A stretch of DNA of 64,000 bases from Natronococcus sp. A-GB1 (GTDB lineage: Archaea > Halobacteriota > Halobacteria > Halobacteriales > Natrialbaceae): positions 1 through 64,000 of the forward strand of contig NZ_JARUKW010000012.1 of the NCBI RefSeq assembly GCF_029688845.1. The letters are read 5' to 3'. Positions 3,208-63,203 of the stretch are shown here, one piece after another (the stretch's first letter is position 1; every line of letters begins with the position of its first letter). Below the pieces are notes generated by a model, which was not told the origin of the DNA, made no database searches, and saw only the letters and a list, made by a program, of their open reading frames with translations. Position numbers and translations under genes: made by a program.

Positions 3208-4176
3208 ATGCCCGCTACCGACGAGACGGATCTGCTCGTCCTTCGTAAGGGAACTCACGGAACGCCGATCGAACGGTACGCCGAGACGCTTCGGGATCGG
3301 CTTCCCGACCGAACCGTCGAACTCGCCCGCACGCCGACCGCCGAGCGCGAACTGATCGAGGACGCCCGCTTCGTCACCGGGATGACCCTCGAGGAGGAGT
3401 TGCTCGAGGCCGCCTCGAACCTCGAGGTGTTCGCCTGTGCCTACGCAGGGACCGGTCATCTGCCACTCGACCGACTCCGAGAACGCGGTGTCAGGGTGAC
3501 CAACGCCTCGGGCGTCCACGGGCCGAACATGGGCGAACACGTCCTCGGTGCGATCTTGCACTTCACACGCCGGTTTCACGTCGCCGAGCGCAGGCAGCGC
3601 CGACGTGAGTGGCGCCACTACCAGGCCCACGAGCTTCAGGGGTCGACGGTCACCATCGTCGGCCTGGGCGCGATCGGACGGGCGACCGCCGAGCGCCTCG
3701 AGCCGTTCGACGTCGAGACGATCGGCGTCCGCTACAGCCCGGAGAAGGGCGGCCCCACCGACGAGGTCGTCGGCTTCGACGACGAGCCCTTCGAGGATGC
3801 GCTCGCCCGGACCGACTACCTCGTGCTCGCCTGTCCGCTCACCGACCTCACGCGGGGATTGATCGACCGCGAGGTCATGATCACGCTCGATCCCGGAGCC
3901 GTGATCGTCAACGTCGCCCGGGGGCCGGTGATCGACACCGATGCGTTGCTCGAGGCGCTGCGCTCGAGCTGGATCCGCGGGGCCTCGCTCGACGTTACCG
4001 ATCCGGAGCCGCTACCGGAGGACCATCCGCTGTGGAACGTCGGGAACGTCCAGATCACGCCCCACAATGCCGGACAGACGCCTCAGTACTACGATCGGCT
4101 GGCCGATATCGTCGCGGAGAACGTTCGTCGGTTCGACGACGGCGACGACGACCTCCGGAACCAGGTCGTTCCCTAA
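3208..4176 (+). CDS. D-2-hydroxyacid dehydrogenase (NAD-dependent)
   Basis: A 322-residue enzyme interconverting 2-oxoacids and D-2-hydroxyacids in the cytoplasm. The NAD fold motif GLGAIG is at about residues 152-157. The catalytic Arg lies in NVARGPVID, the Glu in DPEPLPEDHPLW, and the His in TPHNAGQ. Length is normal. The frame opens at a TTG (3181), but the ATG at 3208 begins the conserved sequence. The substrate (lactate, glycerate, phosphoglycerate or other) cannot be told; the missing C-terminal ACT domain argues against a classic SerA. Confidence 0.85.
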   Translation: MPATDETDLLVLRKGTHGTPIERYAETLRDRLPDRTVELARTPTAERELIEDARFVTGMTLEEELLEAASNLEVFACAYAGTGHLPLDRLRERGVRVTNASGVHGPNMGEHVLGAILHFTRRFHVAERRQRRREWRHYQAHELQGSTVTIVGLGAIGRATAERLEPFDVETIGVRYSPEKGGPTDEVVGFDDEPFEDALARTDYLVLACPLTDLTRGLIDREVMITLDPGAVIVNVARGPVIDTDALLEALRSSWIRGASLDVTDPEPLPEDHPLWNVGNVQITPHNAGQTPQYYDRLADIVAENVRRFDDGDDDLRNQVVP

Positions 4177-24983: not shown

Positions 24984-25283
24984 ATGACTGAAACGACACC
25001 GCAACCGCTCTCCGAATCGACGAACGACTGCTACGTCGTCCAGCACGACCGACTCAACACCAGCCCGCTCAGCGTCACGATCGCCGAGGCGGTCGCGACC
25101 TACCGCGGGACCGACGCGACGGAACTCGAGCCGCTGCACTACGCTGTCAACGCCGACGCACTCGAGCGACTGTTCGAGCCGCGAGCCGACGGCCTTCGAA
25201 CCGGCGGCTCGGTAACCTTCGAGTACAGCGACTGTTTGGTCACCGTTACGGCCGACGGCGAGATCCGAATTACGACCGCGTAA
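24984..25283 (+). CDS. HalOD1 output-domain protein
   Basis: A 99-residue protein. SPLSVTIAEAVATYRGTDATELEPLHYAVNADALERLF and GGSVTFEYSDCLVTVTADGEIRI match the haloarchaeal HalOD1 output domain, proposed to act downstream of sensory or receiver proteins. It follows a Bat-type regulator by 97 bases in the same direction, which suggests a shared pathway. Confidence 0.88.
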   Translation: MTETTPQPLSESTNDCYVVQHDRLNTSPLSVTIAEAVATYRGTDATELEPLHYAVNADALERLFEPRADGLRTGGSVTFEYSDCLVTVTADGEIRITTA

Positions 25284-25405
25284 GCTCACAGTTCCTGGCA
25301 GTCCAGATGTGGGTGATACAGAATACTATGGTGTATAAACACATTATATTGTAATTATTCAACCCCCGAAAGAGCTATACCTGCTCGATCGGAAGGACCG
25401 ATACC

Positions 25406-25510
25406 ATGTCAGAACACACCACTCAGACGATGAAAGACGTCAGCCATACGCCGCCCGCCGGCGAGTCCGTGACGAACGTCTGGAACCGCGGCCGAGACGA
25501 CGACGAGTAA
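25406..25510 (+). CDS. 34-residue microprotein
   Basis: ATG at 25406 to TAA at 25508-25510. The sequence begins MSEHTTQTMKDVSHTPPAG and ends TNVWNRGRDDDE. GGAAGGA at 25391-25397 is a good ribosome-binding site eight bases before the ATG, and a TATA-like TTATATTG lies near 25345. The composition (His/Thr/Pro then an Asp tail) is like a coding haloarchaeal gene rather than a shadow. Function unknown. Confidence 0.6.
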   Translation: MSEHTTQTMKDVSHTPPAGESVTNVWNRGRDDDE

Positions 25511-26278
25511 TCGGCCCCTTCTCGCGGCCGCTCTCAGTTCGCTCGAGTCACGACTTCTCGACGACTTCTTGAGCGGAACTACCCGATAGCACACGGTTCG
25601 GACGTAAACAGGAGGGTCGGAACGAGCGTCACCTCACACGCCGTGCAGCCCCGACCACGTGGACGGTTCCGCCGGCCCGATATCTGCTTTGTGGTTCGCG
25701 GTCGCTCGAGATCCCGCGGAACGGTGTCGACCGCCGGCTTGAGGCTGTCAGCGCGCTCGAGGCCGACGGAACTCTTGTCGAGGCAGTTGCCTCGGTTAGA
25801 TCAGGACGTGGGAACCCACCGATCCGTTGGAGTCGATCGCGGGGACGGCCTCCTGATCGCAGTCGTACTGGCTTCCCTTTCGTCCACTCCGAAGAGGCCG
25901 ATTCCATCCCGACGAGACGATCCACGAGCTATTGTAGAATGGATCTTTCGGGAAAACAGCGAGCCGAATTGAATCGGCTGTACCCTTCGTTGTCACACGC
26001 TCCCTGCAGAAAATAATGCAGAGGGGTTCCGGCATAAGCTTTGTTACTCGATCGTACCGAACTTCGCGATCCCGAGAAACACTGCACGAATCCTCGTAGA
26101 TGGATACCGTTTCGGAAGCGAAGTGGTTATCAGACCCTTAGTAGCTGATACGGCGGTCTGCCGAATACAGAGCCCGTACCGTTTACGGTCCGCTCTTCGT
26201 TCAACACAGACAGATTTGTCACCGAATAGCGTCATGAGGTTGGATTTTTATGACATATTGGAGGAGTCGAAGCGTCGG
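25511..26278. other. Gene-poor stretch, possibly decayed coding DNA
   Basis: About 770 bases with only weak open frames on both strands. A short peptide-like segment around 25753-25795 (ALEADGTLVEAVA) recurs in diverged form near 26712-26755, so this may be decayed DNA of one gene family. Towards 26000-26250 the base composition is more AT-rich than the flanking genes. No gene is called. Confidence 0.5.
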
Positions 26279-26509
26279 TCACCACAGAAGGAGCAAGCCG
26301 GCGAGAAGGAGTGCGAGTTTCACTGACGCGAACGCCGCCTCGTGACCCTCGAGCAGCGACTGGACGCGCGCCGAGTCGTGTTCGGCCGCCGTCAGTATCG
26401 AAAACTGGATCAAACACGCCGCTGCGAGCCAGTTCGTGGCCGCGACCGAGAGGCCGTACGCGAGTGCCAGCATCGCCACGAACAGGCTGAGAACGCGACC
26501 GAGTTCCAT
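26279..26509 (-). CDS. Small two-helix membrane protein
   Basis: A 76-residue protein. Hydrophobic segments at about 4-24 (RVLSLFVAMLALAYGLSV) and 58-75 (SVKLALLLAGLLLLW) flank a polar loop with TAAEHDSARVQSLLEGHEAA. The ATG at 26507-26509 begins directly at helix one. It is isolated in a gene-poor region. Function unknown. Confidence 0.65.
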   Translation of the reverse strand: MELGRVLSLFVAMLALAYGLSVAATNWLAAACLIQFSILTAAEHDSARVQSLLEGHEAAFASVKLALLLAGLLLLW

Positions 26510-27164
26510 ACACTACCTCAGGTTACGCCCGGTCTTGGCGGTTCTGATCGATGCGCCGCCCGTAGTGGACAGCCCGCTTCGTCGGTCGTTCATCGAAAGT
26601 AGACGCCGTATCTCACGAGAGCAAGGCAGCTTCCCTCGCGTCACGATCTCATCGTGTTAACCCTTACCGCGCCCGTCGCTCGAAGATGTCCGGAAGCTCA
26701 GTAACACTATAGCGCTCGGGCTCGAGGGAACTCTAATCGAGGCAGTGGGCGTCGGTCACATCGAGGCGCGACAGTCAGTTCTGACACCGTCGGAGCCAGA
26801 AATCAGAACGTCCGATGCCCGAGGGAAGTTGTTGTGAATCGCCGGAGTGACTGCTCGGTTTCGGCTTCCCGAGACAGGGGTCGGGCGGCAAGAAGGATGG
26901 TCGAAGACTCGAGTCTCGCCGCTCATACCATTTCGATTTGTATGGTGGCAGGGTGCCATAGTACCTCTCACAGCCCTATCCGGTGATTGTACGGGTCTCA
27001 TTCTGCACCTCATCTCCTGAAAACGCCGTCTCAGAATTCAAGTCGTAGTCTAACGCTTGGAATATTCTGCTCGAGAACTATTGAATGACACCTTCTACTA
27101 CGCCTATCGGTAAACAATTCCCGTAATCACTATCAATGGCTCACGGACGCGTCGTCGCGCCCGC
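26510..27164. other. Gene-poor stretch
   Basis: About 650 bases without a convincing gene. It holds the second copy of the weak repeat mentioned for 25753-25795 (here 26712-26755), whose frame ends at a TGA near 26836. Nothing else was recognised. Confidence 0.5.
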
Positions 27165-27923
27165 TTAGTCGCTCATCCCACCGATCTCCATACACTCCAT
27201 CTCCGGCGGTTCGATCGGATCGACCGCTCCCCAGGAGTGGAAATCCATCGTGCCCTCCTCGAATTCGATCCGGTGGATGTACCCCGTGTCGACGCTGACG
27301 TAGTAGGTCGTGTCCTCGTCGACTGCCCCATCCTCTGCAGCGAGGAGTTCGAAGACGTACACCTGTTCTCCGTCGATTTCGTCCGTTCCAGCCGGTTCCA
27401 GTTCCGCGTGTTCGGTGGTTTCGTCCTCGAAATCGGGATCCTCCAAGTCTTCTGCTTCGGGGTCCTCCTGGATGGCTTCGCCCGGACCCATCAGGAAACA
27501 CTCGTCGCCCTCGACCCAGTAAGTCTCGTCGCCGATCACGTACGACTCCCTCGTCCCCTCGTCGCCCTCCAGTCGCATGTAACTGTCCTCGCCGTGGACA
27601 CGCCCGATCCATTCGACCCGTTCGCCTTCCACCTCCATTTCTGCCTCGTAGGCGTAGGCGTCGGCCATCCGGACCGTCTCGCCGAACCGTGCGTCTCCTT
27701 CCCCTTCGTCTTCGTCGTCCGCGTCGTCATCGTCTTCGGCTTCAGCGTCATCTGCGTCGTCTTCGTCGTCCGTGGCGTCGTCCGGGCCGTTCGCGTCGTC
27801 CCCGGTATCATCCGATTCGTCACCGTCGTCGGTGTCGCCGCCCGCACATCCGGCGACGGCGACGATTCCGGCAACGCCTGCCACCCGCAGAACCCGTCGG
27901 CGGGCTAGCGGTTCGTTGGTCAT
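27165..27923 (-). CDS. Tat-exported lipoprotein, LolA/LppX-like fold likely
   Basis: A 252-residue protein. RRRVLRVAGVAGIVAVAGC is a twin-arginine signal ending in a lipobox Cys at about residue 26. A very acidic Asp/Glu linker (about 28-75) follows, then a beta-rich domain with YEAEMEVEGERVEWIGRVHGEDSYMRLEGDEGTRESYVIGDETYWVEGDE, resembling LolA/LppX-type periplasmic lipid-carrier folds. It is anchored outside the membrane; ligand unknown. Neighbours give no hint. Confidence 0.8.
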   Translation of the reverse strand: MTNEPLARRRVLRVAGVAGIVAVAGCAGGDTDDGDESDDTGDDANGPDDATDDEDDADDAEAEDDDDADDEDEGEGDARFGETVRMADAYAYEAEMEVEGERVEWIGRVHGEDSYMRLEGDEGTRESYVIGDETYWVEGDECFLMGPGEAIQEDPEAEDLEDPDFEDETTEHAELEPAGTDEIDGEQVYVFELLAAEDGAVDEDTTYYVSVDTGYIHRIEFEEGTMDFHSWGAVDPIEPPEMECMEIGGMSD

Positions 27924-28230
27924 CTCGGAGCCACCACCATTGTCTCGCTCGCCGTTTTGTTCCCCCTCGGATCGACTGCCGATCCGCGTTCCGTGTCGAT
28001 TGTGTCGGCTCTCATGATATTCTTCGTGGACCCTCGGTGCTCGATCGTCGGTATCGGTTCCTTGTGTCGTCTCCGAATTCGAACCCTAGGGAACCACGGT
28101 GTACGTGCCGCACTAAGAGAATATAAAAACACTCACTAATCAGTTAGCAGTACTGTTCTGAATCGCTATACTGTAGCTGAAAAAATCCTTCCCGTAGTTC
28201 GTTCCGGAGTCTCCCCGTGCCAACAGAACA
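27924..28230. other. Intergenic stretch
   Basis: About 300 bases between the lipoprotein start and the open frame at 28231. No gene, repeat or RNA was recognised; one CTAG is at 28086. Confidence 0.5.
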
Positions 28231-28815
28231 CTACGAGCAGACGGTTCGCGACGGGGTTTGGCTCGTGGAGGACTCAGATCCGATGCTCTCTGAGGACGCT
28301 TCGCTCCTCCGCAAGCACCGGCGAGAGAAGAAATGTAACGAACGCCGCCACACGACACGATGGGCGTCGTCTCGGCGAGCAAGCGACCGTGAGCTGCGAC
28401 GACCACGCGAGATGATTCCGTCACTGCCGACCGATAACCCACCTGTCGCCACGGCCTGATCCACAACCCGTGGAAACGGAGACGTTGTACGTACATTGAA
28501 CGATACGCCGTTTCGATCATTGGCATCCCGTGCTGTTTCGACGCGCCTTCCATCGATTCGCTGGCCCCTCTCTGAATTTCGCGATTGTCGGTCCCCGATC
28601 CACGTCTCTTTTACGCCCTCTAGAGACTCGCCGATTTTCCGGCTGCGATAACCGAAGATGGCTGCCGAACCGTCCTCGGACATTATGATCGGCCAAAACG
28701 GCTCGTCGGCGGTCAGATCCTCTCCAGCAACAGTCGCGTAGACGGCTCCTTCGGAAACACGCTCGAAGTTCTCGACATCGGGGCCGTGATCGCGGTTGTT
28801 GGCCACCGACGACAT
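28231..28815 (-). CDS. Small haloarchaeal protein with an abnormal C-terminal extension
   Basis: GGAGGTGG lies five bases before the ATG at 28813-28815, so the start is well supported. Residues 1 to about 68 (SEGAVYATVAGEDLTADEPFWPIIMSEDGSAAIFGYRSRK) look like a compact beta protein, perhaps of the DUF7556-like type (weak). After about residue 72 the frame turns Arg/Ser-rich and resembles non-coding DNA. A one-base frame change near there would end the protein at once at TAG/TAA, so the natural gene may be about 65-70 residues, with a frame loss adding the tail. No firm family. Confidence 0.45.
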   Translation of the reverse strand: MSSVANNRDHGPDVENFERVSEGAVYATVAGEDLTADEPFWPIIMSEDGSAAIFGYRSRKIGESLEGVKETWIGDRQSRNSERGQRIDGRRVETARDANDRNGVSFNVRTTSPFPRVVDQAVATGGLSVGSDGIISRGRRSSRSLARRDDAHRVVWRRSLHFFSRRCLRRSEASSESIGSESSTSQTPSRTVCS

Positions 28816-28956
28816 GTAGCCACCTCCACCGCTGCCGCTCGAGGACGCTCCACATTGCCATCTACTATAGAATTGTTACGACTGGAACTCGAGTTATATC
28901 CGCAGAAACCCGTCCCAACGGATGTTTTCACGTGGGGATGTAAAGAATTTGATGAG

Positions 28957-29109
28957 TGCCCGGGGAGGGCTCCGAACCCTCGATCTCCGCATGTCCCAGG
29001 TCCGAGGCTCGGCAGTCCTCTAAAGGGACACGGAGGCTTCCAAGGCGGAACCGCACCGAATCTCTGAACCCTATGAGTGCGGCGCTATGTCCAGCTAAGC
29101 CACCCGGGC
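28957..29109 (-). tRNA. tRNA-Met (CAU, elongator) with a 79-nt intron
   Basis: On the minus strand, the acceptor GCCCGGG pairs with CCCGGGC, the discriminator is A, the anticodon stem CCGCA pairs with TGCGG, and the T arm is GAGGG-TTCGGAG-CCCTC. The anticodon loop reads CTCATA before the intron and A after it, so the anticodon is CAT and the intron sits after position 37. The intron is 79 nt and the mature tRNA 74 nt without CCA. Haloarchaeal elongator tRNA-Met is known to carry an intron, removed by the splicing endonuclease. Confidence 0.93.
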
Positions 29110-31340: not shown

Positions 31341-34300
31341 TTAGCACTCGCTCCAGCCACAGGACTCGCAGGTCTTGCAGCCTTCGGAGTAGTACAGCGA
31401 CAGCGAACCGCAGTCCGGACATTCGGGCGACTCGCCTGCGTCGATGAGGTCCTGAATCGCGTCGTCGTCGCTCGCCCCGCTCGCGGCGGCGGCGCCGCCG
31501 TCGGTCTTCGGCCCGTCGACGGCCGTCTCGGCGTCTGCGTCAGCCGCATCCTCCAAGGTCTGCTGAGTCGGGTACGGTTTGTCGATCTCCTCCTCGAGGT
31601 AGCGACGCATCGCGGTGCCGATGGCGTCGGGGATCGACTGGATCTGCTCGCCCTTGTCCCAGGCCACCTTGGGACTTCGGGTCCCGCAGAGTTCGTCGAC
31701 GATCTCTTCGGGGTCGACGCCCGAGCGAAGCGAGGTCGAGATGACCTTCGCCAGCGCCTCGGTAAAGGAGTTCGTGAATCCGCCCGAGTGGCCGATGTTC
31801 GCGAACAGCTCGAACGGCTGGCCCGTCTCGGGGTCCTCGTTGATCGTGACGTAGACCTTCCCGTAGCCGGTGTCGATGCGCTGGCTGACGCCGTGGAGGG
31901 CGTCTGGTCGCTCGCGCTTTTCGGTGAAGTCGACCTGGACGGGCTCGCGGTCGTCCGCCTCGTCGACCAGCGAACCGACGTCGTCCTCGAGGATCTCCTG
32001 GACGTTCTGGCTCTCGAGGAACGCCTCGAGGCCGCCGAAGATCTCGTCGATCTGCTCGACGAGCGTCTCCGCGGCCTCGGTCTCGTCGGCGAAGTCGGCG
32101 TTCTCGGCGCGGGTCGTCAGCACCTGCTTCGACCGGGTGCCGTCACGGTAGTAGGTGACCCCCTTGCCGCCGTGTTCGTAGATGTACTCGAAGACGTCCT
32201 TGGCGTCCTCGAGTGTGGAGTCGCTGGGCGCGTTGACCGTCTTCGAGATCGCGGAGTCGACGCCGGCCTGACAGGCGACCTGCACGCCCGCGTGTGCCTT
32301 CGCCGAGAGGTCGCCGGTCGTGACGAACAGCTCGCCGATCGCGTCGGGCACCGTCGAGAGCCCCTCGACGCCGTTGAACTGGTTGGTCGCCATCTGTTCC
32401 TGGGCCTCCTCCTTGACGGCGTCGACGTCGATGCCGTTGTCCTCCAGCACCCGGAGGAAGTAGTCGTCGAACTCGACTAACATTTCGTCGCCCTGGACGT
32501 CGTCGGAGACGTTCTTGTAGTAGGCGACGTTGTAGATCGGCTCGCAGCCGCCGGTGGTGTTGCCCACCATGCTCGTGGTGCCCGTCGGTGCGATGGTCGT
32601 CGTGTTGTGGTTGCGAATCGGGAACCCGTCGGCCCAGTCGTCGGCGTCCTCGCCGGTCTGGTGTTCGAACCACTCGCGGTACTCGGTCGGGTCCGCGTAC
32701 TTGGACTCGGTCCACTCCTCGAAGCTGCCCCGCTGCTCGGCGAGTTCGTGGGAGGTCCACTTCGAGGTGTGGTTGATGTGGGTCATCAGCTGGCGGGCGA
32801 CCTCGTTGGAGGTCTCGCTGCCGTACTCCATGCCCAGCTGAATGTACAGCTGCGCCAGGCCCATGATTCCCAGCCCGATCTTGCGCATCTCCCGGACCTT
32901 CTGCTCGATCTTCTCGACTGGGAAGTCCGACATGGTGACGACGTTCTCCAAAAAGCGCGTCCCCATCTCGATGCGACGGTCGAACTCCTCGAAGTCGACG
33001 GCCTCCTCGAGGAAGGCGTTGACGGCCGCCTCGAGGTCGTCGTACTCGTCGCCGTGCTCGTCGTACCAGACGCGCCAGTCCGGCGCCTCGAGATCGGCGA
33101 GCGTCGAGAGGTTGATGTGGCCGAGGTTACAGGCCTCGTACTCCTCGAGGGGCTGTTCGCCACAGGGGTTCGTCGCGAGGATGCGGTGGTCGGGGTGTTT
33201 CTCGACGTCGAAGGAGTGTTCCTTGTTCACTCGCTCGAGGTAGATCACGCCGGGCTCGCCGTTCTCGTGGGCGCCCTCGACGATGTCGTCCCAGAGCTCT
33301 TCGGCCGGGATCGACAGCTCCTCGCCGACCTCGACGTACTCGCCGAGACCGAACATCTCGTACAGTTCCTTCGTCTCCGCGGTCGCGATGTGGGGCTCTT
33401 CCGTGCGGGGGTTGGTGAACGTGAACTCCTCGCCGTTCTGCAGGGCCTCCATGAAGTCGTCGGTGACGCCGACGGAGATGTTGAAGTTCGAGAGGTGGCC
33501 CTCGACGGCGTTGCGAAGGTGTTTCGGAACCCGGCCCTCGTCGTCGATGAGCTCGCGGGCCTCCTCTAAGGCCGCCTGGAAGGTGGTGTGCGTGTAGTCG
33601 TCGGGGTCGTTCAGGCGCAGCGTCTCGGCCAGGGAGACGTCTTTGTTCTTGGCGTGGATGAACTGGATGACGTCCGGATGGGAGACCCGCATGACGCCCA
33701 TCTGGGCGCCCCGTCGTGCGCCACCCTGGGCGATCGTCTCGCACATCTGGTCGTAGGTGCGCATGAACGTGATCGGGCCGCTGGCGATACCTCCAGTCGA
33801 GCCGACCGCGTCGCCGTAGGGCCGCAGGCGCCAGAAAGCGTACCCCATGCCGCCGCCGCTCTGGAAGACCTGTGCGGCCTCCTTTGCGGTCTGGTGGATG
33901 TCGTCGATGTCGTCCTCGGGGGAGTCGACGAAACACGCCGAGAGCTGCTGGAGCTCGTCGCCCGCGTTCATCAGGGTCGGCGAGTTCGGCATGAAGTCGA
34001 GGTTCGCCATCATCTCCTGGAACTCCTCGGCGACGTCCTCGACGTGGGCCCGGACCTCCTCGGGCAGCTCGGGGACGACGGTGTCGTAGGCGAACTTGTT
34101 GACGTTGTAGATAGAGAGCGCGGCCTCGCTGTCGTCGTTCGCCGTGGTGCCCGCCCCGAAGACCTCGGCGGCGAGTTCGTCCCGCCGCGGATGGTCGGGC
34201 TTGAGCTGGTCGGGCGTAACCGTGATCTCGAGGTCGCGTTTCTCGGCCTCGAAGACGGCCTCCGCGAGCGCGATGTTCTTGCCGACGCGGTCGAACAGGT

Positions 34301-34463
34301 CCTCCTGGCGCTCGACGAGTTCGCCGTCGGCGTCCTTGCGGAGGTATCGGGCGGGGAGAATGTTGTCGTAGGCGTTGGCGGTCAGGCGCTCCTCGAGGGT
34401 GTCGCCCTCGGTGCGCTTGATCGGGAGGGTGAGCTCCTCCGCGGAGAGATCGGATTCGCTCAT
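31341..34463 (-). CDS. nrdJ: Adenosylcobalamin-dependent ribonucleoside-diphosphate reductase
   Basis: A 1040-residue class II ribonucleotide reductase that makes deoxynucleotides with B12. Recognisable pieces: the first redox Cys in LQQLSACFVDSP, the central loop ATNPCGEQPLEEYEACNLGHINLS with the radical Cys, the APTGTTSMVGNTTGGCEPIYN block, a TSCPD domain (about 870-955), and a zinc-ribbon-like end CPDCGSLSLYYSEGCKTCESCGWSEC. The start MSESDLSAEELTLPIKRTEG at 34463 replaces a longer frame. No intein interrupts it. No partner subunit is needed. Confidence 0.95.
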   Translation of the reverse strand: MSESDLSAEELTLPIKRTEGDTLEERLTANAYDNILPARYLRKDADGELVERQEDLFDRVGKNIALAEAVFEAEKRDLEITVTPDQLKPDHPRRDELAAEVFGAGTTANDDSEAALSIYNVNKFAYDTVVPELPEEVRAHVEDVAEEFQEMMANLDFMPNSPTLMNAGDELQQLSACFVDSPEDDIDDIHQTAKEAAQVFQSGGGMGYAFWRLRPYGDAVGSTGGIASGPITFMRTYDQMCETIAQGGARRGAQMGVMRVSHPDVIQFIHAKNKDVSLAETLRLNDPDDYTHTTFQAALEEARELIDDEGRVPKHLRNAVEGHLSNFNISVGVTDDFMEALQNGEEFTFTNPRTEEPHIATAETKELYEMFGLGEYVEVGEELSIPAEELWDDIVEGAHENGEPGVIYLERVNKEHSFDVEKHPDHRILATNPCGEQPLEEYEACNLGHINLSTLADLEAPDWRVWYDEHGDEYDDLEAAVNAFLEEAVDFEEFDRRIEMGTRFLENVVTMSDFPVEKIEQKVREMRKIGLGIMGLAQLYIQLGMEYGSETSNEVARQLMTHINHTSKWTSHELAEQRGSFEEWTESKYADPTEYREWFEHQTGEDADDWADGFPIRNHNTTTIAPTGTTSMVGNTTGGCEPIYNVAYYKNVSDDVQGDEMLVEFDDYFLRVLEDNGIDVDAVKEEAQEQMATNQFNGVEGLSTVPDAIGELFVTTGDLSAKAHAGVQVACQAGVDSAISKTVNAPSDSTLEDAKDVFEYIYEHGGKGVTYYRDGTRSKQVLTTRAENADFADETEAAETLVEQIDEIFGGLEAFLESQNVQEILEDDVGSLVDEADDREPVQVDFTEKRERPDALHGVSQRIDTGYGKVYVTINEDPETGQPFELFANIGHSGGFTNSFTEALAKVISTSLRSGVDPEEIVDELCGTRSPKVAWDKGEQIQSIPDAIGTAMRRYLEEEIDKPYPTQQTLEDAADADAETAVDGPKTDGGAAAASGASDDDAIQDLIDAGESPECPDCGSLSLYYSEGCKTCESCGWSEC

Positions 34464-35058
34464 GCGCGGGTCACCTCGAGGGTAGCCCGCTGTCGGCTGT
34501 CGATTCGGGTGCGGGACCAAGTCCTGACGAAGATCATTGTAGCGAAGAATCGATATTCATCGACATCGTATAACTTCTTCCATTTTTGGTTCACTAGTGA
34601 AAGTGTAGTTGCAAAGCTATTCCTATGCTCTATCAAGGCTCGCGGGGAAAGAGCGAAACTGCCCTTTTCGCGCTTATGAAGGACTACTACGCCAACCGAC
34701 TTAATGATTTTCAGAGCAAAATGAAAACGCATCTCTAAGAAAAGTTCTTGCCTGATTGCTATGCATATTTCATTTATAACTTCTCACCTGAATACAGATC
34801 CTGGAAATTCGGATGGAGTATAAAATATTTTCGCAGCTGAACAGGCTTCGATGATTCACAGCAGTATGAGGAGCAAATAGACGCCATTTGGCTGGCAGTT
34901 TTATACACATACCTATCCCAGATATATATATGACTGAATCTGCATAGTAGATCTGTCGCCCAGCAAGATCCGGTAGGAAGATAGCAGACTAGACGGATTA
35001 TATGCTGGGCAAAAAGCGGAATCATCTGGACTGCTGCCACAGCCCAGTGGTTGTCGCG
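34464..35058. other. Lower-GC non-coding island (left part)
   Basis: Sequence between nrdJ and a 56-residue frame. It contains repeat A (34538-34726) and then an AT-rich segment around 34740-34960 with no recognised gene. The composition is clearly unlike the flanking genes. Short frames (for example 34774-35040 minus) are not gene-like. Confidence 0.6.
34538..34726 (+). repeat. Diverged direct repeat, copy A
   Basis: Shares TGTAGCGAAGAATCG, TTCGCGCTTA and CTTAATGATTTTCAGA with copy B (35286-35484) in the same order and orientation, with the rest diverged and a few indels. On the minus strand both copies could encode a similar peptide beginning LKIIK and containing KRE and LIE, so the unit may be a decayed small gene or a mobile-element piece. 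Confidence 0.75.
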
Positions 35059-35229
35059 CTATCTGGAAAACCAGACGACCAATGCACAGGCGTAAGCTAC
35101 GAGCCCAAACACGGCTGCCACTAAGACAGTAGTGGATTCACCGGTTGAACTGGCCGCAATAGCAGGGAAAGGGGCGCCTACTGCGAAAGTCGTCTCCAGG
35201 TCTCTACTGTCCGTGTCGTTGGAGGACAT
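35059..35229 (-). CDS. 56-residue microprotein with one C-terminal membrane helix
   Basis: ATG at 35227-35229 (MSSNDTDSRDLETTFAVGAP) to TAG at 35059-35061. A polar head is followed by one strongly hydrophobic helix (TVLVAAVFGLVAYACALVVWF) and a final SR. Codon use is less GC-rich than in neighbours. A tandem pair CGCATGCGG (35248-35270 region) lies upstream and may be regulatory. It lies between the two direct repeats. Function unknown. Confidence 0.5.
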   Translation of the reverse strand: MSSNDTDSRDLETTFAVGAPFPAIAASSTGESTTVLVAAVFGLVAYACALVVWFSR

Positions 35230-35285
35230 GCTCGTTAGGGGTGTCGCATGCGGTCTTTCGCATGCGGCTCCAAGTGACGGCCACT

Positions 35286-35484
35286 TGTAGCGAAGAATCG
35301 GTATTCATCGGCGCCTCATAATTGTAGTGGTATTCTTCCATTCTTATTGTGGTAGTACAACCATGGTTGCATAGCTGGTCCGGTACTCAATCAGGGGTTG
35401 TGATGCGAGGGTGAAACGGCTCTCTTCGCGCTTACGAGTGAGTAGTACGGCGACGGCCTTAATGATTTTCAGACCAGACTGAAA
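35286..35484 (+). repeat. Diverged direct repeat, copy B
   Basis: Second copy of the unit at 34538-34726. The two copies bracket about 560 bases that include the 56-residue microprotein. No terminal inverted repeat or target duplication was noticed. Confidence 0.75.
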
Positions 35485-35599
35485 GTAAATTTGCGGACGA
35501 TGAGGTCCCTCATCCACGCCTCGAGCTGTACGGAACAGATACTGTAATCTTTGCGTGTCTTTCAAAATATCCAGAAAGACTACATAGTTGCCGTGCGGG

Positions 35600-35779
35600 A
35601 TGGAACGTATGCTCGATCCACTCACATCCAGTACGGGGATCCTCCTCGCGCTGGCCGTCCTCGTCCTCGTCATGGTCGCGATCCTCGCGGTTCGGGTCGC
35701 GATCAAACTGGCCATCCGCGTCGGCCTCGTCGCCGGCGTCGCCCTCGCGGGGCTCTACACCGTCGGCGTTATCGGATAG
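35600..35779 (+). CDS. Small hydrophobic membrane protein
   Basis: A 59-residue protein from ATG 35600 (MERMLDPLTSSTG) or 56 from ATG 35609. It is almost entirely hydrophobic: ILLALAVLVLVMVAILAV and VGLVAGVALAGLYTVGVIG, separated by a short charged break (RVAIKLAIR). Probably two membrane helices. GC content returns to the chromosomal level here. No family is recognised. Confidence 0.6.
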   Translation: MERMLDPLTSSTGILLALAVLVLVMVAILAVRVAIKLAIRVGLVAGVALAGLYTVGVIG

Positions 35780-61971: not shown

Positions 61972-62791
61972 TGTAGATCGGACGGTCTCCGCCGCATCGT
62001 TTCTAACGTCTCTCAAAGCGTTCAGTAGACCCCTGCTCTTCACCCTCGTCTCCGTCTTGGCGGTCTGGAGCATCTGGGTACTGGAACTCCATCAGACCGA
62101 CTTCTCGGGCGGCGCTGATGGTCTGGCTTTCCTGTATGGGGCTGCGATCCCTCCGGAAATGAGTGTGCTGGAGGTTGGGCTCCGAGGGCTTCTTGAGACG
62201 CTGTATATCGCGTACGTAGGGACACTGTTTGGGGTCCTTTTGAGCCTGCCAGTGAGTCTGATGGCGAGCCGGAACCTCTTCCCGTGGTATCTCACACTCC
62301 CTGCACGGTGGTTTCTGGCGGTGCTTCGCGTCCTCCCGAGCATTCTGTGGGCGGTGATCTTCGTCATCCTCATCGGGACGGGACCAGCGGCAGGCGTGTT
62401 CGCGATCACGCTCTATACGATCGGATTTATAGGCAAGCTCGAGTACGAAGCGTTCGAAGGGCTCGACAACGAGCCCATAGAAGCGGTCTCCTCCTCAGGT
62501 GCAACTCGGTTTCAGGTACTCCGCTTTGTAGTGCTCCCTCAAGCAGCTAACTCTCTGATCAGTCAAACGATGTTTATGTTCGAGTATAACGTGCGCCATG
62601 CCGCCGCAATCGGGATCGTTGGCGCGGGCGGCATCGGGTACTACATCATGGGGTACCTCGACTTCCTGCAATACGATAGGGTGGTCGTGCTGCTTGCAAT
62701 CGTGTTTCTGGCTGTGTTAGTTATCGACGAACTCAGCTACCGGCTGCGGTCGTTCTTTCTCGGCGACACGAGTACCAGCCTCAGCAAATAA
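61964..62791 (+). CDS. phnE: Phosphonate-type ABC transporter permease
   Basis: A 275-residue protein with six hydrophobic segments. The EAA-like loop is EYEAFEGLDNEPIEAVSSSGATRFQVLRFVVLPQAANSLISQ, which contacts the ATPase. The last helices (RHAAAIGIVGAGGIGYYIMGYLDFLQYDRV) are typical PhnE. It is coupled to phnC by overlap. Confidence 0.9.
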   Translation: MSNVDRTVSAASFLTSLKAFSRPLLFTLVSVLAVWSIWVLELHQTDFSGGADGLAFLYGAAIPPEMSVLEVGLRGLLETLYIAYVGTLFGVLLSLPVSLMASRNLFPWYLTLPARWFLAVLRVLPSILWAVIFVILIGTGPAAGVFAITLYTIGFIGKLEYEAFEGLDNEPIEAVSSSGATRFQVLRFVVLPQAANSLISQTMFMFEYNVRHAAAIGIVGAGGIGYYIMGYLDFLQYDRVVVLLAIVFLAVLVIDELSYRLRSFFLGDTSTSLSK

Positions 62792-62971
62792 AGCCTCCTG
62801 TGGCCCGTATATCGACTTAACAGGGTTCGAACGGGTTCTGATCGACAGTGTTCACCTTCAGCTGTACTGAACGCACTCTCTGGAGTCCAAACGGCACGTA
62901 GCCTGTTCCACGACACGCTCTACTTCTGTAACTACGCGTACCTCTCGACGCATGTCGGCGAGAACGACCTG
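62792..62971. other. Spacer before the PhoU remnant
   Basis: About 180 bases. One frame encodes a short plausible peptide (RSLFHDTLYFCNYAYLSTHVG) that may belong to the damaged gene to its right, but the fit to PhoU is not clear. Confidence 0.35.
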
Positions 62972-63203
62972 ACGATACGCTGTTCTCCGAGGGAACGACG
63001 AGGCTAATACGAACGGCCACCGTTCGCTCGAGGCCGTTCCGGAGATCGACGAACACACCCGTCACGTCGACGAACTCCTTCGTGATCTCGATCCCGTGCA
63101 GGCCCAGTCGCTCGGCCTGGTGCTCGACTCGCTGTCCCGCAGCGCCGACTACGGTGGCAACATCGCCGAGACGGCCCTGCAGAAGGCCGCACCCCGCCCC
63201 TGA
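62972..63203 (+). pseudogene. PhoU remnant (C-terminal part)
   Basis: The frame from just after a TGA near 62969-62971 to TGA at 63201-63203 reads ...SLEAVPEIDEHTRHVDELL, then VQAQSLGLVLDSLSRSADYG and NIAETALQKAAPRP, the conserved C-terminus of haloarchaeal PhoU-type phosphate regulators. No start and no N-terminal domain remain in this frame. It lies beside a phosphonate-type transporter, fitting a former phosphate-response locus. Confidence 0.65.

What the first reader, a model, noticed from the sequence alone, without database searches (positions are those of the whole stretch)
34538..35484. Diverged direct repeats bracketing a membrane microprotein in a lower-GC island
About 190-200-base units at 34538 and 35286 share several exact strings in order. 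Between them is AT-rich DNA and a 56-residue frame with one membrane helix. On the minus strand both repeats could encode related peptides with LKIIK and LIE segments. This could be a duplicated small gene, an element scar, or an RNA family.
Basis: partly seen in the sequence, partly recalled or inferred. Interest (0 to 1): 0.6.

Follow-up and report, generated by a model that had tools for sequence, protein, structure and literature searches.

The report
Membrane peptide cassette hijacking nrdJ promoter
The two repeats are copies of the control region of the gene for a DNA-building-block enzyme (ribonucleotide reductase), and between them sits a tiny membrane-peptide gene that uses one copy; similar insertions with unrelated membrane peptides occur in other salt-loving archaea, so this may be a DNA-damage-triggered membrane-peptide module of a kind not yet described in archaea.

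Summary
The repeats are real (69-70% identity over about 190 nt). They are two copies of the regulatory region of nrdJ, the class II ribonucleotide reductase gene starting at 34463 on the minus strand. Relatives normally have one copy; a model of its core promoter hits 119 of 125 family genomes. Here it is duplicated around a cassette. Comparison with empty-site Natronococcus amylolyticus places the junction in a conserved 20-bp block between TATA box and leader. The distal copy is the native promoter and now points at the 56-residue membrane peptide; the proximal, diverged copy came with the insert and now serves nrdJ. Natrialba aegyptia has the same arrangement and junction. Further nrdJ-type promoters, some beside integrases, also precede small hydrophobic ORFs: 8 of 11 distinct cassettes against 1.7% of control windows. 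Three homologous ORF pairs show dN/dS of 0.34-0.52. nrdJ is UV-induced in Halobacterium. I infer damage- or dNTP-stress-inducible membrane peptides, possibly type I toxin-like; toxicity and antitoxin are untested. The RNA-family reading failed (no covariation), as did NrdR as regulator (absent from Natronococcus).

The parts
31341..34463 (-). nrdJ, class II (cobalamin-dependent) ribonucleotide reductase
   Evidence: ORF; N-terminal 185 aa has relatives in 123 of 125 family genomes
34460..34537 (-). Short upstream ORF whose stop overlaps the nrdJ start (ATGA)
   Evidence: frame open in 103 of 104 relatives, but no codon-type substitution signal
34537..34737 (-). Proximal repeat: insert-borne, diverged copy of the nrdJ regulatory region, now upstream of nrdJ
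   Evidence: model score 29.5 bits; near background against the empty-site relative until about -100
34537..34564 (-). Block E of the proximal copy (insertion junction)
   Evidence: Junction by empty-site comparison; block E begins at -92 of nrdJ in 104 of 121 relatives
34740..35058 (.). AT-rich spacer of the insert, no homologue found
   Evidence: no match in plasmids or phages
35059..35229 (-). 56-aa single-helix membrane peptide ORF of the cassette
   Evidence: hydropathy 2.55; no homologue in 125 family genomes
35245..35287 (-). Two perfect stem-loops at the expected 5' end of the cassette transcript (CAAGTGgccgtCACTTG and CGCATGCGaaagacCGCATGCG)
   Evidence: Sequence; fold and stem test
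35285..35489 (-). Distal repeat: native nrdJ regulatory region, now pointing at the 56-aa ORF
   Evidence: 92% identity to the single copy of N. amylolyticus; model score 57.1 bits
35285..35315 (-). Block E of the distal copy
35315..35323 (-). Probable TATA box of the proximal-type promoter in the native copy (ATTATGAGG)
   Evidence: Position as TTTATGA/TTTAAGA near -111 in relatives; assignment by sequence only
35458..35489 (-). Block A of the native copy, TTTACTTTCAGTCTGGTCTGAAAATCATTAAG, with UV-motif-like ACTTTCA
   Evidence: class-wide position; motif paper PMC2556686
35609..35779 (+). Divergent 56-aa membrane microprotein, conserved neighbour of nrdJ
   Evidence: Relatives in 110 of 125 family genomes; no Pfam match

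Best explanation
Shown by sequence: the two repeats are the native (35285-35489) and an insert-borne (34537-34737) copy of the nrdJ regulatory region. A cassette of about 750 bp sits exactly at conserved block E, between the TATA box and the nrdJ leader. As a result the native promoter points at the cassette's 56-residue single-helix membrane peptide, and the promoter that came with the cassette serves nrdJ. The same arrangement with unrelated small hydrophobic peptides recurs in other haloarchaea, and nrdJ-type promoters precede such peptides elsewhere in genomes, some beside integrases. Inferred: the peptide is made when nrdJ is induced, that is on DNA damage or dNTP shortage, and acts on the cell membrane as TisB-like small toxins do; a 5' stem-loop, and in some cassettes a sequence repeated before and after the ORF that an antisense RNA could use, would hold translation back. 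I put the toxin-like step alone at about 0.35; the number below is for the promoter-capture cassette.
For: Repeat = nrdJ upstream region. Junction in block E in two genera by empty-site comparison. Intergenic distance mostly 400-500 nt, enlarged in the four genomes with a cassette at nrdJ. Other cassettes. Hydrophobic ORF within 300 nt in 8 of 11 cassettes against 1.7% of controls. dN/dS 0.34, 0.36, 0.52 in three homologous pairs. Stems of at least 6 bp in 6 of 11 cassettes and 0 of 121 nrdJ leaders. Direct repeats around the ORF in four cassettes. nrdJ induced by UV in Halobacterium: PMC2556686 and PMC1224876; motif [CT]ACTTTC[AG] upstream of nrdJ in 101 of 121 and 39 of 45 regions.
Against: The window's own 56-aa ORF has no homologue and its cassette lacks the flanking direct repeat, so it is called a gene by position, hydrophobicity and analogy. 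UV induction was measured in Halobacterium, another genus. TATA and start sites are read from sequence. The N. jeotgali ORF has no canonical start codon, and the ORFs of G030 and G027 have no shared start. The 11 cassettes fall into about six unrelated groups, so p-values overstate. ORFs were partly chosen by eye before the unbiased test. No toxicity or antisense RNA was tested.
Confidence: 0.75

Rival explanations
1. Neutral scar: the nrdJ promoter was duplicated by a recombination accident that brought in unrelated DNA, and the 56-aa frame is not a gene.
For: No homologue of the 56-aa ORF; no match of the insert in plasmids or phages; the proximal promoter copy is degenerate (29.5 bits).
Against: The same junction in two genera, hydrophobic ORFs behind 8 of 11 such promoters against 1.7% of controls, and purifying selection in three homologous pairs.
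Confidence: 0.18
2. Mobile-element cargo that is not a toxin: small membrane peptides for superinfection exclusion, lysis or element maintenance that borrow the nrdJ promoter for timing.
For: Three cassettes lie beside tyrosine integrases, others beside HerA-like or Orc1/Cdc6-like ORFs, recognised by eye; one is on a Natrinema versiforme plasmid.
Against: Promoter pattern absent from viral contigs; no PHROG match of note. It overlaps the toxin reading and cannot be separated from it here.
Confidence: 0.3
3. The repeat is a structured RNA (leader, riboswitch or sRNA) that was duplicated.
For: About 230 nt of nrdJ upstream DNA is conserved in order and spacing.
Against: No covarying pair in 38 leaders, no folding excess, no Rfam match near threshold.
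Confidence: 0.04
4. The shared block D is a set of NrdR boxes, and the duplication puts the peptide in an NrdR regulon.
For: The same promoter block lies directly upstream of nrdR in G128 and G174.
Against: No NrdR domain in nine Natronococcus genomes and in few of the relatives searched; half-sites about 10 bp apart, not two boxes about three helix turns apart as in PMC9110341.
Confidence: 0.06

Closest known systems
TisB/IstR-1 of Escherichia coli (SOS-induced small membrane toxin; PMC8145889 abstract)
   Same: A very small hydrophobic peptide behind a promoter of the DNA-damage response (inferred here from nrdJ induction in Halobacterium).
   Different: No sequence relation found; archaeal promoter of a metabolic gene instead of LexA control; toxicity and antitoxin unknown.
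Fst/par of plasmid pAD1 (type I toxin-antitoxin; PMC7472228)
   Same: Small membrane peptide with a direct repeat before and after the ORF in four cassettes.
   Different: The window's own cassette lacks the repeat; no antisense promoter shown; no sequence relation found.
UV-B promoter motif TTTCACTTTCA of Halobacterium (PMC2556686)
   Same: Block A of nrdJ regions carries [CT]ACTTTC[AG], in other families often with a TA-rich box 18-34 nt further on (29 of 40).
   Different: It lies about 265 nt upstream of nrdJ, and nrdJ was not among the genes for which that paper reported the motif.
Integrative elements that restore their target gene
   Same: The insert brings a replacement for the target's upstream part, and the junction is a short shared block.
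   Different: A promoter rather than a gene end is replaced, and the insert of about 750 bp has no integrase.

Membership tests
nrdJ regulatory region of haloarchaea | Ordered blocks A, D, TATA and E upstream of nrdJ | tested here: met
   the native copy has all blocks; the proximal copy has A and D/TATA degenerate
Type I toxin-antitoxin system | Small hydrophobic peptide, single membrane helix | tested here: met
   Hydropathy 2.55 for the window's ORF, at least 1.9 in 9 of 11 counterparts
Type I toxin-antitoxin system | Antisense RNA antitoxin | not testable with these tools
   No transcript data; a repeat that could serve antisense pairing exists in four other cassettes but not in the window's
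Type I toxin-antitoxin system | Toxicity of the peptide on overexpression | not testable with these tools
   Needs expression experiments
Fst/par type I family | Direct repeats on both sides of the toxin ORF | tested here: not met
   Window cassette: no repeat of 11 nt or more; met in G050b, G055, G086 and G295
TisB or another described small-toxin family | Sequence membership | tested here: not met
   No Pfam or PHROGs match above cut-off for the peptides
NrdR regulon | NrdR encoded in the genome | tested here: not met
   PF22811 absent from the window's genome and eight relatives of the genus
Integrative mobile element | Own integrase | tested here: not met
   No room in about 750 bp; integrases only beside some dispersed cassettes
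Rfam RNA family | Match or conserved base pairing | tested here: not met

The most novel reading that the evidence does not exclude
Haloarchaea carry a family of mobile cassettes that insert at the start point of nrdJ, hand nrdJ a replacement promoter and place small membrane toxins under the native, DNA-damage-responsive promoter: an archaeal counterpart of SOS-induced type I toxins. A 2025 paper (PMC12390103, abstract) states that type I systems had so far been discovered only in certain bacterial phyla.
Probability: 0.3. Interest if true: 0.82.

Novelty: new variant of a known kind. Interest (0 to 1): 0.62.

Why it matters
If true, it is a first candidate for type I-like, damage-inducible membrane peptides in archaea. 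It also gives a class-wide nrdJ promoter architecture (a distal UV-motif element about 265 nt upstream plus a proximal promoter with a fixed 20-bp block), which would help to find the unknown regulator of the archaeal DNA-damage response, and it suggests an unusual insertion strategy in which a promoter is replaced in place.

Tried and rejected
RNA family or riboswitch: no covariation, no Rfam match near threshold, no folding excess. Duplicated small gene on the minus strand: the LKIIK frame is not kept over the length of the peptides. NrdR as regulator: first suggested by an nrdR gene behind the same block, then rejected because Natronococcus has no detectable NrdR. CdrS as regulator: nrdJ is not mentioned in the CdrS paper. 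Virus or plasmid origin of the insert: exact promoter pattern absent from IMG/VR; 8 hits of a 16-mer taken as chance; no phage or plasmid DNA match to the insert. Start of the short upstream ORF at -98: start codon not conserved (ATG, ACG, CTG, GTG, GAG). VNG1642 as homologue of the divergent microprotein: it lies downstream of nrdJ.

Full report
Observation. Two diverged direct repeats are present at 34537-34726 and 35285-35484, 69% identical over about 190 nt with E = 6e-18, and they are the only two copies in the genome. They bracket an AT-rich stretch and a 56-residue minus-strand frame with one strongly hydrophobic segment.

What the repeat is. Immediately downstream of the proximal repeat, on the minus strand, is nrdJ, the class II ribonucleotide reductase (start 34463). 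All nine genomes of the genus searched (Natronococcus, by the named records) carry the repeat. nrdJ sits beside a divergent 56-aa membrane protein (35609-35779 here) in most of 125 family genomes, and the distance between the two starts is mostly about 400-500 nt. Among the genomes measured it is much larger only in the window's genome (1146), Natronococcus jeotgali (943), Natrialba aegyptia (987) and G122 (1281). The alignment of 121 upstream regions shows ordered blocks in nrdJ sense: A, ACTTTCAGTnnGgTCTGAAAATCrTTAAG at about -290 to -250; D, TTGT/ACAA half-sites about 10 bp apart, followed by a probable TATA box (TTTATGA or TTTAAGA) near -111; and E, ACCGAACCTTCGTCACGAAT, which begins at exactly -92 in 104 of 121 genomes. 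A sequence-only model of D and E (R1) finds the promoter in 119 of 125 family genomes. TATA and start-site assignments are my reading of the sequence; no transcript data were available.

Block A. The string [CT]ACTTTC[AG] lies at -330 to -230 in 101 of 121 family regions and 39 of 45 regions from other families, against 0 to 6 regions in the neighbouring windows and 1 on the other strand. It shares ACTTTCA with TTTCACTTTCA, which PMC2556686 found upstream of UV-B-induced genes of Halobacterium. That study and PMC1224876 report nrdJ itself and the downstream gene VNG1642 as consistently UV-induced. The inference that block A is a distal damage-responsive promoter element of nrdJ is mine.

Insertion. 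Against Natronococcus amylolyticus (single copy), the distal copy of the window is about 92% identical from -399 to -79 and then falls to background, while the proximal copy is near background until about -100 and then rises; both junctions share CGATTCTTCGCTACAA. So the distal copy is native, the insert ends inside block E, and the insert carried the proximal, diverged copy (29.5 bits against 57.1 for the native one). Natrialba aegyptia compared with N. asiatica shows the same switch around -106 to -87. For N. jeotgali only the native-like distal half was resolved, and G122 was not resolved by that script. Whether this is site-specific or homologous recombination is not known.

What the insert encodes. 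Behind the native promoter come two perfect stem-loops and the 56-aa ORF. Other nrdJ-type promoters precede small ORFs in N. jeotgali, N. aegyptia (two loci), Natronococcus sp. A-GB7, G122, G030, G027 (two identical loci), G055 and G086, and G295 of another family has a tandem layout with nrdJ. One further copy, in G003, precedes a transporter-like ORF instead. A test of 11 distinct cassettes finds a 30-110 aa ORF with 19-residue hydropathy of at least 1.8 in the first 300 nt in 8 of 11, against 1.7% of random windows and 1.7% of shuffles; the cassettes fall into about six unrelated groups, so the binomial p of 1e-12 overstates it. Three homologous pairs have dN/dS of 0.34, 0.36 and 0.52. Stems of 6 bp or more follow the start region in 6 of 11 cassettes and in 0 of 121 nrdJ leaders. 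Four cassettes (G050b, G055, G086, G295) have a direct repeat of about 18-23 nt before and after the ORF, as DRa/DRb do in the Fst system (PMC7472228). The window's own cassette lacks this repeat, and its 56-aa ORF has no homologue. G050b, G055 and G086 lie beside tyrosine-integrase-like ORFs, recognised by eye from the translation.

Mechanism. Best supported: a small membrane peptide gene has captured the native nrdJ promoter while nrdJ received the cassette's promoter, so the peptide should be made when nrdJ is. That it is a toxin-like effector of DNA-damage or dNTP stress is inferred from size, hydrophobicity, promoter and analogy with TisB; I put that step at about 0.35. Rivals are other mobile-element cargo and a neutral scar. 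The RNA-family and NrdR readings were tested and do not hold.

Known or new. No paper on type I systems in haloarchaea was found in the held library, and the UV motif appears in an archaeal context only in PMC2556686 among the papers listed; the library is incomplete. No peptide matches a known family above its cut-off, so I do not file it as a member of a toxin family. I rate it a new variant of a known kind.

Noticed in passing
34460-34537 (-) and 104 relatives: A short arginine-rich ORF of about 25 codons upstream of nrdJ ends on the nrdJ start (ATGA overlap); its frame is open in 103 of 104 genomes with fixed length, but substitutions show no coding signal. Possibly translational coupling.
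   Followed up: partly
35609-35779 (+): A very hydrophobic 56-aa microprotein is the divergent neighbour of nrdJ in 110 of 125 family genomes and has no Pfam match.
   Followed up: partly
nrdJ upstream regions of 166 haloarchaea, -330 to -230: A class-wide UV-motif-like string [CT]ACTTTC[AG] far upstream of nrdJ, not reported for nrdJ in the paper that described the motif.
   Followed up: partly
L214 (G174) and L216 (G128), about position 1944-2400: An nrdJ-type promoter block directly upstream of nrdR in two genomes of other families, although NrdR is absent from Natronococcus.
   Followed up: partly
L199 and L200 (G027): Two identical loci 37 kb apart with an nrdJ fragment carrying stops, an nrdJ-type promoter and a small hydrophobic ORF.
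   Followed up: partly
L201 (G003), about position 3276-3362: An nrdJ-type promoter in front of what looks like a substrate-binding transporter protein.
   Followed up: no
L196, L198, L202, L212: Direct repeats (CTCTCCGGGCTTAGGC-type and CCGGGyACACCGGTTTTGGAAGC) before and after small hydrophobic ORFs; the CTCTCC type occurs in pairs 163 nt apart in two genomes.
   Followed up: partly
nrdJ upstream regions of the family, between blocks A and D: A GC-rich palindrome-like string (GGCCGTyTCGrCGGyC) recurs between the two promoter elements; no covariation was found in the alignment.
   Followed up: no
window 25001-29000 and 62001-63000: Further lower-GC stretches (0.56-0.61) in the window.
   Followed up: no
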